Positions 53,630 through 59,947 of a stretch of DNA of 61,553 bases are shown one piece after another. This stretch comes from an uncultured Anaeromyxobacter sp. GTDB lineage: Bacteria > Myxococcota > Myxococcia > Myxococcales > Anaeromyxobacteraceae. The stretch spans positions 1-61,553 of the forward strand of contig CAIOAK010000149.1 of NCBI GenBank assembly GCA_903855945.1, read 5' to 3'. Each line of letters starts with the position of its first letter. The stretch's first letter is position 1. Position numbers and translations under genes: made by a program. Under the pieces are notes generated by a model, which was not told where the DNA came from, made no database searches, and saw only the letters and a program-made list of their open reading frames with translations.

Positions 53630-55186
53630 CTACGCCACCGCCCGGGGAGCGGGGGGAGTCCCGTCGGTCGGCTTGCGAACCGGCGCCGTGAGCCCCTCTG
53701 CGACCATGCGGGCGGGGAACTGCCGCTTCGACACCGGGTGCGGCCGGAAGGGTCCCCGGATGAGCCCGAGGAGGTCGCTCCAGGACATGTGGCGGCTGAA
53801 GTTGCGGAAGAGTTCCCACGTCCGGACCGGGCGCGTGGCCATGCGATGGAGCAGCAGGTTGGCGTAGCCCCACATCCGGATCCGGTTCACCTCGTCGGTG
53901 GGCACCGTGTCCGGATCGACGTCGCAGCACTTGAAGGTCTTGTCCCAGTCCTTCTCGTTGTCCACGAGGCCGCGCTTCGCGTACTCGTCCCAGAGCGGCG
54001 TCCCCCGGTAGACGGCCAGCCGGTTGAAGCCGAAGGTGTCGATCTGGAGGCGCGCCGCGTACCGGAAGGTCTCCCGGATCTCCTCGGCGGTCTCTTCCGG
54101 AGCACCGATGACGAAGAAGCCGTGCACACGCGAGATCCCGTGGCGCTTCGCCTCGGTGACGGCGTGCTCGACCTGCTCGAGGGTCTGCCGCTTCCGGAGG
54201 CGGTCGAGCACCCGCTGGGTCCCGGCCTCCACCCCGTAGGCGAGCCACTGGCAGTTGGCCTTCCCCATGAGCGGGAGCTGGTCCACGCCCACCGAGTCGA
54301 CGCGTCCCTCGCACCCCCAGTGAAACTTGAGGTCCCGATCGATGATGCCGTTGCAGATGGCGGCGATGCGCTTGCTCTGGAGCAGGAAGTGGTCGTCGGT
54401 GAGGTAGATCGACCGGTATCCCTTGTCGGAGAGCTCCTGCATCTCGCCCAGCACGTGCTCCGCCGATCGGGACCGCCACTTGCCCTCCCCGATGGAGGGG
54501 ATGTCGCAGTAGATGCAGGTGTAGGGGCAGCCGCGGGAGGTCTGGATGGTGCAGAACTTGTCGAGCGAGAGCACCGCCGGGATGTCGAGCGGGAGCGACT
54601 CGATGTAGTCGATGGGCAGGCTCTCCCGATCCGCGTAGGGGAACCGGTCGAAGTCCCGCAGGAGCGGCCGGGAACGGTTCTGGACGATCTCCTCGCCCCG
54701 ACGCCACGCCAGGCCGTCCACCACCGCCGGGTCGTCCAGGTGGGCGAGGTAATCGGGGAAGAGCTCCTCGCCCTCGCCCACGCCCACGTGATCGATGAAG
54801 GGGCACTCCTCGAGGATGTGCTTCGCGTTGATGGTCGCGAACGGGCCGCCGACGATGATGCGGACACCCGGATTCGCGCCCTTGATCACCTTCGCCGCCG
54901 CCTTGAGGTACGGGAAGGCGGTCACCGAGAGAAACGAGAGCGCGATGACGTCGGGCCGCTCCTCCCGCGCCGCGCCGGCGATGTCCTCGGCCTGCATCCG
55001 GGGATGGCAGGTGTCGAACATCCGCACCTCGTGCCCGGCCTGCCGGAGGATGGGGGCGAGCATCTGGATGCCCAGCGGCGGGAAGGCCATCACCTTGACC
55101 CGGTCGGTGGCCAGGGCCGGCTCGGGCTGCCCGGGCAGGAGATGGAAGTAGTCGTCGTCCTGCACGTAGGCGAGGTAAACGCGCAT
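53630..55186 (-). CDS. B12-binding domain radical SAM protein (second)
   Basis: A 518-residue cobalamin-dependent radical SAM enzyme. The B12 domain spans about 30-150 (PPLGIQMLAPILRQAGHEVR; VRIIVGGPFATIN), the 4Fe-4S motif is in QTSRGCPYTCIYCDIP, and VEAGTQRVLDRLRKRQ and FFVIGAPEETAEEIRETF mark the barrel end. Distinct in sequence from the enzyme at 38.6 kb, so not a recent duplicate. Likely a methyltransferase or cyclase on an unknown natural product or lipid. Confidence 0.9.
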   Translation of the reverse strand: MRVYLAYVQDDDYFHLLPGQPEPALATDRVKVMAFPPLGIQMLAPILRQAGHEVRMFDTCHPRMQAEDIAGAAREERPDVIALSFLSVTAFPYLKAAAKVIKGANPGVRIIVGGPFATINAKHILEECPFIDHVGVGEGEELFPDYLAHLDDPAVVDGLAWRRGEEIVQNRSRPLLRDFDRFPYADRESLPIDYIESLPLDIPAVLSLDKFCTIQTSRGCPYTCIYCDIPSIGEGKWRSRSAEHVLGEMQELSDKGYRSIYLTDDHFLLQSKRIAAICNGIIDRDLKFHWGCEGRVDSVGVDQLPLMGKANCQWLAYGVEAGTQRVLDRLRKRQTLEQVEHAVTEAKRHGISRVHGFFVIGAPEETAEEIRETFRYAARLQIDTFGFNRLAVYRGTPLWDEYAKRGLVDNEKDWDKTFKCCDVDPDTVPTDEVNRIRMWGYANLLLHRMATRPVRTWELFRNFSRHMSWSDLLGLIRGPFRPHPVSKRQFPARMVAEGLTAPVRKPTDGTPPAPRAVA

Positions 55187-55253: not shown

Positions 55254-55697
55254 TCAGTTACACATGGCGTATTCGCGGCCGTCGGCGCGCAGGATGATCG
55301 CGCCGTTCGAGTTCCGGGTCGCGTCCAGGCCGACGTCCTGGAATCCGGCGCCGGCCCCCTGATCGACGTACAGGCGAAGGCTCTCGACCTTCCAGCGCAG
55401 GGCGTCCTGCTTCCTCGACTGCCCCGCGTAGGTGCCGCCCTGGCCGGAGCTGTAGGTCTCGGCGCCGCCGCTCATCAGCATCACCCCGTCCCGGCGGAAC
55501 ACCACCTTGCGCGTGGTGGAGGTGCCGCTCACCTTGTTGTAGGTGAACGAGCACCAGGCGCTGCTCGTGAGGATCTGCCGGACCTGGGCATCCTGCGAGC
55601 CGTCCGGGGCATCCCGGGACGGGCCCGGTTGCGGCGCCGCCGATGCCTGGCCGACCGGCATGCCGAGCAGCGTGATGAGGAAGAGCAGCTTGCGCAT
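55254..55697 (-). CDS. Small secreted protein next to the TIR gene
   Basis: A 147-residue exported protein with signal peptide MRKLLFLITLLGMPVGQASA. The mature part has a WCSFTYNKVSG block, a basic strand (TTRKVVFRRDGVML) and a C-terminal DGREYAMC; Cys near WC and the last Cys could form a disulfide. Lipocalin-like beta character, family not recognised. AGGAGCC before the ATG is its Shine-Dalgarno. It follows the TIR gene after 39 nt on the same strand and is probably the third gene of the RyR-TIR operon. Confidence 0.7.
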   Translation of the reverse strand: MRKLLFLITLLGMPVGQASAAPQPGPSRDAPDGSQDAQVRQILTSSAWCSFTYNKVSGTSTTRKVVFRRDGVMLMSGGAETYSSGQGGTYAGQSRKQDALRWKVESLRLYVDQGAGAGFQDVGLDATRNSNGAIILRADGREYAMCN

Positions 55698-55736: not shown

Positions 55737-56972
55737 CTACTGGGCGCTCAACTGCAGCCGCGCCTGGGCCTTGAAGGTGGGCTGGACGTCCGTCACGTCC
55801 TCGCCCGGGACCCTGCCGAACTCGAGGTCCACCGTGAGCACGGGAGGGGTCTTTCCCAGGAGCATGTGCCCGGAGATGCGGACGTAGGCCTTGCCGTCGG
55901 TCGCGCGGGCCACCTGCACCCCCTCGAAGGACACGCGGTCCCCGTCGCGGGTGGCGCGCACGGTCATCGGGAAGAACCCGGGCGCCTGGTCGGCCGGGGC
56001 GAAGGTGAAGGCGCCACGCGGGCCGAGGTACCACTTCGCGTTTCCGACGAGGGACCGGCCGTGCCCCCGCGCCTCGGGGCTCCCCAGGTACTGGTTGAAC
56101 GACACCACCTCGGAGGTCGCGAAGGCGAGACGTTGCTCGGGCGGGCTCGCCGGAGGGGGGGCCGGTTGCTCGGTCCCCGGCGCGGCCGCCACCGACTTCC
56201 GGGCCTTCTGCACGGGCGCCTTCTGCACGGGCGCCTGCTGCACGGGCGCCTGCTGCACGGGCGCCTTCTGCGGGACGGCTGCCTCGCGGGGGGCCTGCGC
56301 CGGGAGGGGCGCAGCCACGGCCACCTCGGCGGGCGCAGCCGCCCCGGCGCTCGGTGGCTTCCCCCCGGGCCGGAGCAGGAGCACGGCGCCCACGCCGATC
56401 GCGGCGATCACCCCGGCGACTGCGATTCCGATCCGGAGCCGATCGCGCCCCCCCACCCTGCCCCGGGAGAGCCGAGGTCGCAGCGACTCGATGAGTTGCT
56501 GGACGTTGTGGTCCCAGTCCTGCTCGGTGATCTGGAGGCATTGTCGGCTCAGGAGGCCGTGCAGCGACTCCGGCAGGTCCTCCTCGGCGGGGACCGTGGC
56601 CCCTCCGATGAGCACCGGAACCACCAGGACGTCCGGGCGCCGGAGCGCCGTGCCGATCTCGAGGGCCACGACGTCGCGTGGGTCCTTGATGCGGCGTCGC
56701 CCCGCCGCGTCCACCACGTTCACCCAGGCCTTCCCGATGAGGACGAGGACCACCTGGCAGTGCCCCACGGTGTGCTCGATCTCCTCGAGGTAGTTCACCC
56801 CTGGTGCGAGCCCCTTCACGTCCATGAAGACCTGGTCGGGGAAGGCGCGCTCCAGGGCGTAGAGCAGCGCGCGGGCCTGCCCGCCGCTGTCCTCGCGCCG
56901 GTAGTTGATGAAGATGGCGCGGCGGCGGTCCGGACCCCCGTCGTGGCTTTCCGGCCCGGGACCCGGGGTCAT
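55737..56972 (-). CDS. TIR-domain transmembrane protein with extracytoplasmic domain
   Basis: A 411-residue protein with three parts. The TIR domain (about 18-165) opens RRAIFINYRREDSGGQARAL, then FMDVKGLAPGVNYLEEIE; E105 in DVVALEIGTALRRP sits where TIR NADases have their catalytic Glu. One membrane helix (181-200, IGIAVAGVIAAIGVGAVLLL) and an Ala/Pro linker with APVQQ/APVQK repeats lead to an unrecognised beta-rich domain (about 275-411). Positive charges before the helix place TIR inside and the tail outside. Known TIRs hydrolyse NAD+ or make signal nucleotides; activity here is inferred. Its ATG overlaps the RyR stop (ATGA). Confidence 0.85.
   Translation of the reverse strand: MTPGPGPESHDGGPDRRRAIFINYRREDSGGQARALLYALERAFPDQVFMDVKGLAPGVNYLEEIEHTVGHCQVVLVLIGKAWVNVVDAAGRRRIKDPRDVVALEIGTALRRPDVLVVPVLIGGATVPAEEDLPESLHGLLSRQCLQITEQDWDHNVQQLIESLRPRLSRGRVGGRDRLRIGIAVAGVIAAIGVGAVLLLRPGGKPPSAGAAAPAEVAVAAPLPAQAPREAAVPQKAPVQQAPVQQAPVQKAPVQKARKSVAAAPGTEQPAPPPASPPEQRLAFATSEVVSFNQYLGSPEARGHGRSLVGNAKWYLGPRGAFTFAPADQAPGFFPMTVRATRDGDRVSFEGVQVARATDGKAYVRISGHMLLGKTPPVLTVDLEFGRVPGEDVTDVQPTFKAQARLQLSAQ
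56201..56273. repeat. 15-bp tandem repeat in the TIR linker
   Basis: Four full copies plus a partial one of GGGCGCCTTCTGCAC (T or G at one position) encode APVQK/APVQQ in the extracytoplasmic linker. The copies are nearly identical at the DNA level, so the linker length is likely to vary between strains. Confidence 0.75.
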
Positions 56973-57283
56973 CGCTCTCCCCCCGGTTCGACCGGACCGA
57001 CGATCCGGAACCCGAACGCGTAGAGCGCCCTCAGCGTCGCCTCCGCCGCGATGCGGTCGTACTTCTTCTCCTCCTCGGGGAGGTCGTCGAACGGCACGAG
57101 GCTGGGATGGAACTTGGTCGCGTCCTCGCGACGGGGGCCGAGCGTCCATCCGTCGGCCAGACGCTCCCGGGCCCAGGCGTCGTGGACGGCCCGGGCGAGT
57201 CGGTCCAGGACGGCCTCGACCTCCTCGGGCAATCGACCCCGGGCGATCTCCGGCGGCAGCGGCCCACCTTGGCTGGACGGCAT
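56969..57283 (-). CDS. RyR-domain small protein
   Basis: A 104-residue protein whose body matches the RyR domain first seen in ryanodine receptors: an N-terminal helix (LPEEVEAVLDRLARAVHDAW), ADGWTLGPRREDATKFHPSL, VPFDDLPEEEKKYDRIAAEA and LYAFGFRIV. Prokaryotic RyR domains occur in nucleotide-signalling and conflict systems and are thought to bind a small ligand; that is not proved here. The ATG at 57283 was chosen because residues further upstream are not conserved in character. The stop overlaps the TIR start by 4 nt, so the two proteins are made together. Confidence 0.82.
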   Translation of the reverse strand: MPSSQGGPLPPEIARGRLPEEVEAVLDRLARAVHDAWARERLADGWTLGPRREDATKFHPSLVPFDDLPEEEKKYDRIAAEATLRALYAFGFRIVGPVEPGGER

Positions 57284-57514
57284 TCGCAGGGGGTGATCAC
57301 GGAATCGCCGCTCCCGGCCCGTTTCCACCCTTCTCCTTTCCTTTGGCGGCTCCGTGCCCGAGTATCACGAGCGAACCCGATCCGGCCAGCCTGCTGCACC
57401 CGGAGGACGGGCCCGGGCAGGCCCCGCGACCCCGGTCTGGCCGATACCCGTGCCGGGCGACCCTCGAATGCGGCATAATCAGGAGATCGTCTGTACCAAC
57501 CGGGGGGGATTCGG
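57284..57514. other. 231-nt divergent control region, RyR-TIR / barrel-SLATT
   Basis: The longest unexplained intergenic gap in the window. It holds GTGATCAC (57293-57300, self-complementary) close to the RyR start, and CATAAT (57474-57479) as a -10 candidate for the barrel gene with no good -35, suggesting an activator. The barrel ATG has a run of seven G as its Shine-Dalgarno. No RNA gene or further ORF is evident. Confidence 0.5.
57474..57479 (+). promoter_or_regulatory. -10 candidate for the barrel-SLATT operon
   Basis: CATAAT (5 of 6 matches) lies 35 nt before the barrel ATG. The hexamer 17 nt upstream (TGCCGG) is a poor -35. Confidence 0.35.
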
Positions 57515-58198
57515 ATGAAGCGACTTTTCGTTCTCTTGTGCCTTGTCGTGGTCGTCGCCCTACCGCACGGTGCGCGGGCCCAGCAGGGGGTCGACCCATT
57601 CCTGAAGGCCGCGCCCGCCGGACCGCCGGAGAGCGGGCTCTCCCTCGCGCTCAGCATCGGCTACGCAGTGCCGATGGGGAGCATCGACGGGTCCGCGAAG
57701 GTCTCGGACTTCTTCAGCGGCGGTCTTCCGCTCCAGGTGGACATCGGCTGGCGCTTCACCCCCAACCTCTACCTGGGCGCCTTCTTCGAGTACTCGTTCG
57801 CCTTCCTGAACTCGACGGTGAGCAGCGGCTGCTCGGCGACCCCCGGAGTCAGCTGCTCGGGCAGCAACATCCAGTTCGGCGTCGACTTCGTCTACACGTT
57901 CATGCCGTACGCGAAGTTCGCGCCTTACGTGGGACTCGGCGTCGGGTGGGAGTTCGCCTCCCTGAGCGCGTCCGCATCCAATGTCTCCCAGTCGCTGACG
58001 CTCTCGGGCTTCCAGTTCGCCCGCATCATCGTGGGCGGCGATTTCCGGGTGGGTTCTGCCTTCCGGGTCGGCCCCTTCGTGAACTTCTCGCTGGGTCAGT
58101 ACGGCAGCGTCAGCTCCACGGGTCTGAACCTCACCCTCGGGGACAAGACCCTCCACGAGTGGTTCCAGTTCGGGGTCAAGGGCACCGTAGACCTGTGA
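57515..58198 (+). CDS. Outer-membrane beta-barrel protein upstream of SLATT
   Basis: A 227-residue exported protein. The signal peptide is MKRLFVLLCLVVVVALPHGA, then RAQ. The mature chain is a series of amphipathic strands with alternating aromatic residues (LSLALSIGYAVPMG, LQVDIGWRFTPNLYLGAFFE, IQFGVDFVYTFMPYAKFAPY, FQFARIIVGGDFRVG), consistent with an 8-strand OmpW/OmpX-like barrel; it ends FGVKGTVDL without the usual terminal Phe. Two Cys in SSGCSATPGVSC may pair. The stop overlaps the SLATT GTG, so a barrel and an inner-membrane effector are translationally coupled. Confidence 0.8.
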   Translation: MKRLFVLLCLVVVVALPHGARAQQGVDPFLKAAPAGPPESGLSLALSIGYAVPMGSIDGSAKVSDFFSGGLPLQVDIGWRFTPNLYLGAFFEYSFAFLNSTVSSGCSATPGVSCSGSNIQFGVDFVYTFMPYAKFAPYVGLGVGWEFASLSASASNVSQSLTLSGFQFARIIVGGDFRVGSAFRVGPFVNFSLGQYGSVSSTGLNLTLGDKTLHEWFQFGVKGTVDL

Positions 58199-59112
58199 CC
58201 GAGCCGGAGCGGTCGGCGCCCGTATCGTTCGACGCCTACCCCGGCCTCTTCCAGGGGGCCGACGTGGCGGCCGTCTCGCTCCGGTCACGCCATTACGGGG
58301 GCGAGGCGCTGCTGCTCGTCCTGAACCCGGTCAGCGCGGGCCTGGCCCTGCTCGTCACGCTGGGGGCGGTGCGGCTTCCAGGCGCCGTGTTCACGGCGAT
58401 CTCGACCATGCTCATGGTCCTCGCGCTCTGGGTGACGCGCGCCGCGCACTGGCAGCACAAGTGGTACGAGTGCCGGAGCGTCGCCGAGGACCTGAAGCGG
58501 CTCACCTGGCGCTACCTCATGCAGCTCGAGCCCTTCACTGCCGACGAGAAGGCCCCCGACGCGGCCTTCGTCTCCGCGGCGAACGGGATCCTGCACCGGT
58601 ACCCGGGGGTGCTCACCATCGTGGGACGGCGCGACCACACCCCGTCGCCACCGGTCACGCCGGAGATGCGGCGCGTGCGACAGTCGAGCGTCGAGGAGCG
58701 CGCCGAGCTCTTCCTGACGTCACGCCTGCGCCCCGAGGTGGCCTGGTACGCGGCCAAGGCACGGCGCCTGGGGACGGCCGACCGCAGGTGGTTCGCCGCC
58801 CTGATCTTCGTGCAGGTCGCCGCCGTCGCTTCCGCCCTCATCCTGGCCTTCCGGGTTCTCCGGGGCACCTGGAGTCCTGCCGAGGACGGCTGGGTGGTCA
58901 TGCTGACGGCCGTGGGCACTTCCATGATCGGCTGGCAGCGATCCAAGCGCTTCTCCGACCTGGAGTCCTCCTACGCCGCCACGGCTCATGCCCTGGCGGG
59001 GATGGAATCGGCCCGGCCGCAGCCGTCCGAGTCGGGCCCGTACGTGAAGTGGCTCGAACGCGTGGAGGCGACGCTGGCCCAGGAGCACGAGGCCTGGCGC
59101 CACATGACCTGA
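58195..59112 (+). CDS. Tandem SLATT-like (DUF4231-type) membrane protein
   Basis: A 305-residue protein with two helix pairs (about 38-59 with 65-81, and 198-220 with 233-246), each followed or preceded by SLATT-type sequence: HKWYECRSVAEDLKRLTWRY, then LMQLEPF, after the first pair, and ERAELFLTSRLRPEVAWYAA with KARRL before the second. Both helix pairs are flanked by cytoplasmic helices. SLATT proteins are predicted pore-forming effectors tied to nucleotide-signal systems. GTG start overlaps the barrel stop (GTGA). The proximity of TIR and RyR genes supports a shared system. Assignment by pattern, not by search. Confidence 0.72.
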   Translation: MTEPERSAPVSFDAYPGLFQGADVAAVSLRSRHYGGEALLLVLNPVSAGLALLVTLGAVRLPGAVFTAISTMLMVLALWVTRAAHWQHKWYECRSVAEDLKRLTWRYLMQLEPFTADEKAPDAAFVSAANGILHRYPGVLTIVGRRDHTPSPPVTPEMRRVRQSSVEERAELFLTSRLRPEVAWYAAKARRLGTADRRWFAALIFVQVAAVASALILAFRVLRGTWSPAEDGWVVMLTAVGTSMIGWQRSKRFSDLESSYAATAHALAGMESARPQPSESGPYVKWLERVEATLAQEHEAWRHMT

Positions 59113-59130
59113 CCCCGGCTGGACATGGAA

Positions 59131-59159
59131 ACGCCCCGGGCAGAAGTGCCCCGAGGCGT
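59131..59159. terminator. Bidirectional terminator candidate
   Basis: ACGCCCCGGGCA-GAAG-TGCCCCGAGGCGT forms a long, slightly imperfect hairpin with a GAAG loop between the convergent SLATT and outer-membrane protein genes. No strong T-run follows on either side. Confidence 0.5.
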
Positions 59160-59181
59160 CCCTTCGGTCCGTCCGTCCAGC

Positions 59182-59865
59182 CTAGAAGAGCCGGTAGCCC
59201 ACGAAGGCCTGTACCTGGAACGCGAACAGCGCAGAGGACCCCGACGAGGTGGGGATCGCGACGCCGAAGCGGGTATTCAGGCCGAGGGCCAGGTTCGGGT
59301 TGTCGAGGTGGTACTCGACGTACGGTCCCGCCCACGGGCCGATGACGAACGTGACGGGGGTGGTCACGTTGAGCGCCATGTTGAGGTCGAGGCCGAACCC
59401 GACCTCCACGTTGCGCGCCACGGGGAAGCCGCCCACGATTCCGACCGGGGCCTGGAAACCGAAGATCGTGTTGCTCGTGGTACCGCAGTAATAGAAGTTG
59501 CAGGTGCTGCTCCCGAAGTAGAGCTGCACGCCCGGATCGACGTGGAGGAGCATGTTGAACCCGCTCCCGCGAACCAGCTGGAAGCGGATGGGAGCCCACA
59601 GGCCGAGCCCGAACTGGGTGAGGGTCGTGCCCCCGAGTCCGTAGAGGAGGCCGAAGCGGATGCCGAGGTCGCTCGACTTGCCCATGCTGAAGGTGTAGCC
59701 GAAGTTGACGTTGGGCCAGCCGACCTGGACGTCCTCGTAGGCCTTGCCGGTGTTGACCTGGGCTCCGACGACGCTCCAGTCGCCCAGCCCCTTGGCCTCC
59801 TGGGCCAGGGAAGAGAAGGGAGCGAGCGCGAGCAGGACCACGAGTGCGAGCGACTTGAGTCTCAT
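59182..59865 (-). CDS. Outer-membrane beta-barrel protein (second)
   Basis: A 227-residue exported barrel-type protein: signal peptide MRLKSLALVVLLALAPFSSL, then AQ, strands such as VNFGYTFSMGKSSDLGIRFG and NVEVGFGLDLNMALNV, and a canonical C-terminal strand FAFQVQAFVGYRLF ending in Phe, the BAM recognition signal. A Cys pair sits in TCNFYYCG. It is unrelated in sequence to the barrel at 57515 but equal in length. AGGAAA is the Shine-Dalgarno. Function unknown. Confidence 0.8.
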   Translation of the reverse strand: MRLKSLALVVLLALAPFSSLAQEAKGLGDWSVVGAQVNTGKAYEDVQVGWPNVNFGYTFSMGKSSDLGIRFGLLYGLGGTTLTQFGLGLWAPIRFQLVRGSGFNMLLHVDPGVQLYFGSSTCNFYYCGTTSNTIFGFQAPVGIVGGFPVARNVEVGFGLDLNMALNVTTPVTFVIGPWAGPYVEYHLDNPNLALGLNTRFGVAIPTSSGSSALFAFQVQAFVGYRLF

Positions 59866-59919
59866 CGGTTGTTTCCTTTCGGAGGTGGAGAGGCCGGGCG
59901 AGCCTAGCAGAACCGAGGT

Positions 59920-59947
59920 TTCTTATTCACCACCCCGGGGGAGTCAA
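59920..59947 (-). promoter_or_regulatory. Promoter of the second barrel gene
   Basis: On the minus strand TTGACT (59942-59947), a 16-nt spacer and TAAGAA (59920-59925), giving a leader of about 50 nt. Confidence 0.45.

What the first reader, a model, noticed from the sequence alone, without database searches (positions are those of the whole stretch)
55737..56972. TIR domain wired through the membrane to an extracytoplasmic sensor-like domain
Most bacterial TIR effectors are cytosolic and sense phage from inside. Here a TIR with a candidate catalytic Glu105 is followed by one membrane helix, a repeat linker and a beta-rich domain of about 135 residues placed outside. That is receptor-like topology, as in animal Toll receptors but inverted in order. 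Topology is inferred from charge and hydrophobicity.
Basis: partly seen in the sequence, partly recalled or inferred. Interest (0 to 1): 0.6.

Follow-up and report, generated by a model that had tools for sequence, protein, structure and literature searches.

The report
Membrane TIR receptor-like gene with RyR, SLATT
A soil bacterium related to Anaeromyxobacter carries a small, shared gene cassette in which a membrane-anchored TIR enzyme-like protein is co-encoded with a relative of the nucleotide-binding domain of animal calcium channels and sits beside a predicted pore-forming protein, which suggests, but does not prove, a built-in alarm-and-kill circuit that starts at the cell envelope.

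Summary
The gene is real, on the minus strand (56972-55737, 411 aa): TIR_2 domain, one strong membrane helix (181-199), a variable Ala/Pro/Gln linker and a conserved C-terminal domain (279-411). E105 aligns with SARM1 E642. Predicted topology is TIR inside, C-terminus outside. The 'sensor' role is unproven. TIR plus one membrane helix plus a tail also occurs in other Myxococcota, so topology alone is not new.

The context says more. The TIR start codon overlaps by 4 nt the stop of a RyR-domain gene (PF02026). Divergently transcribed are an outer-membrane barrel and, again with a 4-nt overlap, a SLATT_3/SLATT_1 protein. This cassette recurs at 60-70% identity in one other species, in a different setting. 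RyR, SLATT_3 and this TIR are each found in only those 2 of 24 family genomes. A 2026 preprint shows phage RyR-domain proteins bind or cleave the TIR products 2'/3'cADPR; all four key residues are present here at the same spacing.

Best reading: a Thoeris-like TIR to cADPR circuit with a host-side RyR protein (receptor or off-switch), a SLATT membrane effector and an envelope-facing TIR. No step is shown experimentally. New variant of a known kind.

The parts
55737..56972 (-). TIR-TM-ectodomain protein, 411 aa
   Evidence: start overlaps the RyR stop as ATGA
56478..56921 (-). TIR domain, residues 18-165; E105 at 56658-56660
   Evidence: PF13676 1.5e-9; SARM1 alignment
56376..56432 (-). membrane helix, residues 181-199
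   Evidence: hydropathy and flanking charge
56139..56366 (-). Ala/Pro/Gln-rich linker with KAPVQ repeats, residues 203-278
   Evidence: 43% identity, dN/dS about 0.69 between the two species
55740..56138 (-). C-terminal (predicted extracytoplasmic) domain, residues 279-411
   Evidence: 80% identity, dN/dS about 0.13; homologue on a Stanieria plasmid
56969..57283 (-). RyR-domain protein, 104 aa from ATG; carries H34, W37, H59, D76
   Evidence: PF02026 2.6e-24; residue offsets 0,+3,+25,+42 match RyDEP H75/W78/H100/D117
57515..58198 (+). outer-membrane beta-barrel-like protein OMP1, 227 aa, with an N-terminal hydrophobic segment
   Evidence: weak OMP_b-brl match, below the curated cut-off; 68% identity to the relative's copy; paralogues in 23 of 24 family genomes
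58195..59112 (+). SLATT_3 + SLATT_1 protein, GTG start overlapping the OMP1 stop (GTGA)
   Evidence: PF18184 4.5e-22, PF18181 5.7e-16
59182..59865 (-). second predicted outer-membrane protein OMP2, 227 aa, convergent with SLATT
   Evidence: conserved in the block; no Pfam hit; genus-wide family
57284..57514 (.). shared divergent promoter region between RyR-TIR and OMP1-SLATT
   Evidence: inferred from gene layout

Best explanation
A compact envelope-coupled TIR signalling cassette, most likely defensive. The TIR sits on the inner face of the inner membrane; its C-terminal domain lies in the periplasm on a flexible linker and may contact the outer-membrane proteins encoded beside it. A signal at the envelope clusters the TIRs, which convert NAD+ to a cyclic ADP-ribose. 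The small RyR-domain protein, co-translated with the TIR, binds that signal in the cytosol. The SLATT protein, a predicted membrane effector, then permeabilises the inner membrane and the cell stops growing or dies. Shown by sequence: domains, overlaps, conservation and co-occurrence. Predicted: topology. Inferred from other systems: TIR catalysis, RyR ligand, SLATT as pore. Guessed: the trigger, contact with the OMPs, and that RyR is receptor rather than off-switch.
For: RyR and TIR genes overlap by 4 nt (ATGA), OMP1 and SLATT by 4 nt (GTGA); the RyR-TIR overlap recurs in the relative L002 and the order of all five genes is the same there. The block 55740-59922 is the only part of the window that matches 40 kb of the relative's contig. 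RyR, SLATT_3 and this TIR each occur in exactly the same 2 of 24 family genomes, single copy, within 3.4 kb. E105 = SARM1 E642. The RyR protein has the four ligand/catalytic residues of phage RyDEP at identical spacing, and RyDEP-family proteins bind or cleave 2'/3'cADPR (PMC13232231). SLATT is predicted to be a nucleotide-responsive pore and is found beside TIR genes (PMC7159879, PMC9503650). The ectodomain is under strong purifying selection.
Against: The SARM1 W638 position is V101 and the E599 position is A56, so catalysis is uncertain. The four RyR residues are conserved across PF02026, so their presence does not prove cADPR binding by this protein. The cassette is seen in two related species only. 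The ectodomain has no confident fold (pLDDT 55) and no known ligand. OMP1 has paralogues in 23 of 24 family genomes, nearly all outside any such cassette, so its role in the system is doubtful. No known defence system is called by PADLOC models beyond a partial ThsB match. No experiment.
Confidence: 0.42

Rival explanations
1. Same circuit, but the RyR protein is the off-switch: it sequesters or hydrolyses the TIR product, setting a threshold and preventing self-killing, and SLATT senses the signal directly.
For: Tested phage RyR proteins sequester or degrade cADPR; the catalytic dyad H/D is intact here; coupled translation with the TIR suits an inhibitor.
Against: Only one of the tested phage members is hydrolytic; no nucleotide-binding domain other than SLATT itself would then receive the signal.
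Confidence: 0.25
2. The TIR simply depletes NAD+ on activation (or is a non-catalytic scaffold), and SLATT/RyR are neighbours of separate function.
For: TIR proteins that kill by NAD+ depletion are known in CBASS and Pycsar (PMC9122126); the aromatic residue at E-4 is missing.
Against: The genes co-occur and are shared as a block by two species, and RyR overlaps the TIR gene.
Confidence: 0.15
3. An envelope-stress or developmental signalling system rather than immunity, using the same domains.
For: Envelope proteins OMP1/OMP2 lie in the block; the TIR has a predicted extracytoplasmic domain; no defence island was shown around it.
Against: Patchy distribution and a block shared in different settings, and SLATT/TIR/RyR partners known mainly from conflict systems.
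Confidence: 0.18

Closest known systems
Thoeris anti-phage systems (TIR ThsB + effector ThsA)
   Same: TIR protein with the catalytic-position Glu, predicted to make a cADPR-type signal for a partner effector
   Different: no ThsA (SIR2-SLOG or Macro) was seen next to it; the TIR is membrane-anchored with an outer domain; adds a RyR protein and SLATT
TIR-SLATT gene neighbourhoods (Aravind group; phage TIR-SLATT loci, PMC9503650; TIR effectors with SLATT, PMC7159879)
   Same: TIR encoded beside a SLATT membrane protein
   Different: here SLATT_3 and SLATT_1 are fused in one protein, divergent from the TIR, with a RyR gene and an outer-membrane barrel added
RyDEP family of RyR-domain proteins (PMC13232231)
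   Same: stand-alone PF02026 domain with H/W/H/D at identical spacing
   Different: RyDEP is phage-encoded and anti-Thoeris; this one is in a bacterial operon overlapping a TIR gene
TIR-TM-repeat-tail proteins of other Myxococcota (L051, L052, L053, L055)
   Same: same TIR subgroup, one TM helix, low-complexity outer tail
   Different: no conserved C-terminal domain, and no RyR or SLATT_3/1 homologue found by tblastn within about 6 kb
Animal Toll-like receptors
   Same: TIR inside, another domain outside, single pass
   Different: domain order reversed, no LRR, no evidence of ligand binding or of common descent of the architecture

Membership tests
TIR domain (PF13676) | profile match over the whole domain above the gathering score | tested here: met
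   38.8 bits against cut-off 28, profile 1-122/122
TIR domain (PF13676) | catalytic Glu of NAD-cleaving TIRs | tested here: met
   E105 aligns with SARM1 E642 and is kept in P0008 and P0013
TIR domain (PF13676) | NADase or cyclase activity | not testable with these tools
   needs purified protein; V101 at the W638 position is a caution
Single-pass N-in/C-out membrane protein | one hydrophobic helix with positive-inside flanks | tested here: met
   181-199, K/R 6 before against 2 after; prediction only
RyR domain / RyDEP family (PF02026) | profile match and ligand/catalytic residues H75, W78, H100, D117 | tested here: met
   85.7 bits; H34, W37, H59, D76
RyR domain / RyDEP family (PF02026) | binding or cleavage of 2'/3'cADPR | not testable with these tools
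   literature on phage members only
SLATT (PF18184, PF18181) | profile matches above cut-off and membrane helices | tested here: met
   79.4 and 59.1 bits; three hydrophobic segments by simple hydropathy
Thoeris | ThsB TIR equivalog score | tested here: not met
   ThcB4 32 bits against cut-off 220; only a partial ThsB match, E 1.3e-7
Thoeris | ThsA effector (SIR2-SLOG or TM-Macro) beside the TIR | tested here: not met
   neighbours are RyR, OMP, SLATT and a small secreted-looking protein
Avidin/calycin barrel (ectodomain) | shared fold | tested here: inconclusive
   best Foldseek E 0.015; VIA Z 7.2, rmsd 3.7, 101 aligned, on a model with pLDDT 55

The most novel reading that the evidence does not exclude
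A bacterial receptor-like TIR that senses at the periplasm or outer membrane and signals through a cyclic ADP-ribose to a host-encoded RyR-domain receptor that gates a SLATT membrane channel: a prokaryotic parallel to cADPR control of animal ryanodine-receptor channels.
Probability: 0.2. Interest if true: 0.88.

Novelty: new variant of a known kind. Interest (0 to 1): 0.6.

Why it matters
TIR enzymes make cADPR signals, and in May 2026 phage RyR-domain proteins were reported to capture or destroy them. This locus puts a host RyR gene in translational overlap with a TIR gene, beside a predicted membrane effector. If the RyR protein is the receptor, it would be a new kind of cADPR sensor and would give a direct test of whether RyR domains can act as receptors for TIR signals, an open question for animal ryanodine receptors. 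If it is an off-switch, phages may have borrowed theirs from hosts. Either result is reachable with small proteins and standard assays. The outer domain would also be a rare case of a TIR wired to the cell envelope.

Tried and rejected
Weak ectodomain matches L016/L017 (E 0.002-0.005) showed no credible homologous gene on inspection. Rhodococcus hit H8 (E 0.04) was not used. Ectodomain profile against PDB: only cold-shock proteins and cell-surface proteins at E 0.07 or worse, taken as chance. P0005 is not related to the ectodomain by BLASTP and has no counterpart beside the relative's TIR gene, so it was left out of the system. Empty-site search: flanking radical SAM and ThrH-like genes exist in sister genomes but in unrelated surroundings, so no clean empty site could be shown. 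RyR in three large-genome Myxococcota is a TrkA_N-RyR fusion without a TIR, not this system. No viral contig encoded a relative of the TIR protein. No match in E. coli genomes. Searching other phyla for RyR-TIR pairs was limited by caps and by genome centres being Myxococcota only, so rarity is shown within Myxococcota only.

Full report
What was checked. The finding's coordinates hold a minus-strand gene, 56972-55737, 411 aa. Pfam finds TIR_2 at 20-161 (E 1.5e-9) and nothing further except a sub-threshold low-complexity Extensin match to the linker. The nearest solved sequences are SARM1 TIRs; counting along the alignment puts E105 on E642, with Y24/R25/R26 on Y568/R569/R570, but V101 on W638 and A56 on E599. 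There is one hydrophobic helix, 181-199, at the same place in the relative, with more positive charge on its N-side.

Is it a real gene under constraint? The one close relative (L002 = G015:C27, an uncultured Anaeromyxobacter MAG) encodes the same protein at 70% identity. By region: TIR 87% identity, dN/dS about 0.23; membrane helix 58%; linker 43%, about 0.69; ectodomain 80%, about 0.13. So the outer domain is at least as constrained in dN/dS as the TIR domain, and the linker behaves as a spacer. At 76 residues and rich in Pro and Ala, the linker could plausibly reach across much of the periplasm; that is inference.

The surroundings. The TIR start overlaps by 4 nt (ATGA) the stop of a RyR-domain gene (PF02026, E 2.6e-24). 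Divergently, an outer-membrane-type protein is followed, with a GTGA overlap, by a SLATT_3+SLATT_1 protein. A second predicted outer-membrane protein converges on it. In the relative the same five genes lie in the same order and the RyR-TIR overlap recurs. Comparing all window frames with 40 kb of the relative's contig, only 55740-59922 matches, so the unit is shared while its setting is not.

Co-occurrence. Among 24 genomes of the family, this TIR is in 2, SLATT_3 in 2, and RyR in 2 (5 of 195 in the phylum, the other three being TrkA_N-RyR fusions). They are the same two genomes, one copy each, within 3.4 kb. Three single-copy genes landing that close by chance in a 4-Mb genome is of the order of 1e-6 (my estimate), before counting the second species. 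OMP1, by contrast, belongs to a family found in 23 of 24 genomes and OMP2 to a genus-wide one, so their membership of the system is less secure.

What RyR adds. A May 2026 preprint (PMC13232231) reports that phage RyR-domain proteins bind 2'cADPR and 3'cADPR, the products of TIR enzymes in Thoeris, and that one hydrolyses them; H75, W78, H100 and D117 contact the ligand, H75 and D117 being catalytic. The window's RyR protein has H34, W37, H59, D76: identical residues at identical spacing (0, +3, +25, +42), as does the relative's. These residues are conserved across the family, so this is compatibility, not proof. Elsewhere RyR genes also sit in signalling contexts: a Priestia plasmid operon with a Pycsar-type effector (PycTM) and a protein annotated as a nucleotide cyclase, with a TIR gene 1.35 kb away, and beside or fused to TrkA_N/RCK-type membrane proteins. 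In the library searched, no paper described a bacterial RyR-TIR pair.

What SLATT adds. SLATT has been predicted to be a nucleotide-responsive pore-forming effector and is found with TIR genes in conflict loci (PMC7159879; PMC9503650). A three-gene TIR plus transmembrane system from a P2-like phage protects E. coli, with a nucleotide messenger proposed (PMC9122126). So TIR plus SLATT is a known kind; TIR-TM-ectodomain plus RyR plus SLATT was not found described.

The ectodomain. It has no Pfam family. AlphaFold with two sequences gives a two-helix, seven-strand model at pLDDT 55, with weak resemblance to avidin barrels (Foldseek E 0.015, VIA Z 7.2), which at this confidence may be only a common arrangement. 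Its only clear distant homologue is a stand-alone 164-aa protein on a Stanieria plasmid near an NB-ARC gene (29% identity over the aligned part, E 2e-7), with no predicted membrane segment. That weakens the idea that the domain is inherently an outside sensor.

How common is the topology? The nearest other TIRs in Myxococcota include four with one membrane helix after the TIR and a repeat tail but no conserved outer domain (L051, L052, L053, L055; L051 also has a borderline hydrophobic stretch inside its TIR), and a Streptomyces relative has several membrane segments. TIR wired to the membrane is therefore a recurring theme; the conserved outer domain and the partners are what set this one apart.

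Verdict. The best account is an envelope-facing TIR signalling cassette with a host RyR protein as receptor (favoured) or off-switch, and SLATT as effector. Architecture, conservation and co-occurrence are shown; topology is predicted; chemistry and trigger are inferred.

Noticed in passing
window 55254-55697 (-): Small secreted-looking protein (147 aa, P0005) directly downstream of the TIR gene, no family, no counterpart beside the relative's TIR gene.
   Followed up: partly
window 53630-55186 (-): B12-binding radical SAM protein; 72-73% identical homologues in two sister genomes in different surroundings.
   Followed up: partly
L071, L072, L073: About 590-aa TrkA_N-RyR fusion proteins in large-genome Myxococcota, beside a conserved set of genes.
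   Followed up: partly
L011 653-5279 and 6631-8862: Priestia plasmid operon: PycTM effector, two unknown genes, a protein annotated as nucleotide cyclase (TPR-S domain in Pfam), RyR as last gene; a 743-aa TIR_2 protein on the other strand nearby.
   Followed up: partly
L095 7046-8493: In an unverified faecal 'phage' scaffold, a RyR gene directly precedes a membrane protein with a weak RCK-like match; flanking genes look bacterial (SusC/FecR-like), so the scaffold may not be phage.
   Followed up: no
L010 5914-6408: Ectodomain homologue on a Stanieria plasmid, between an EAD4-NB-ARC gene and a dynamin-family gene.
   Followed up: partly
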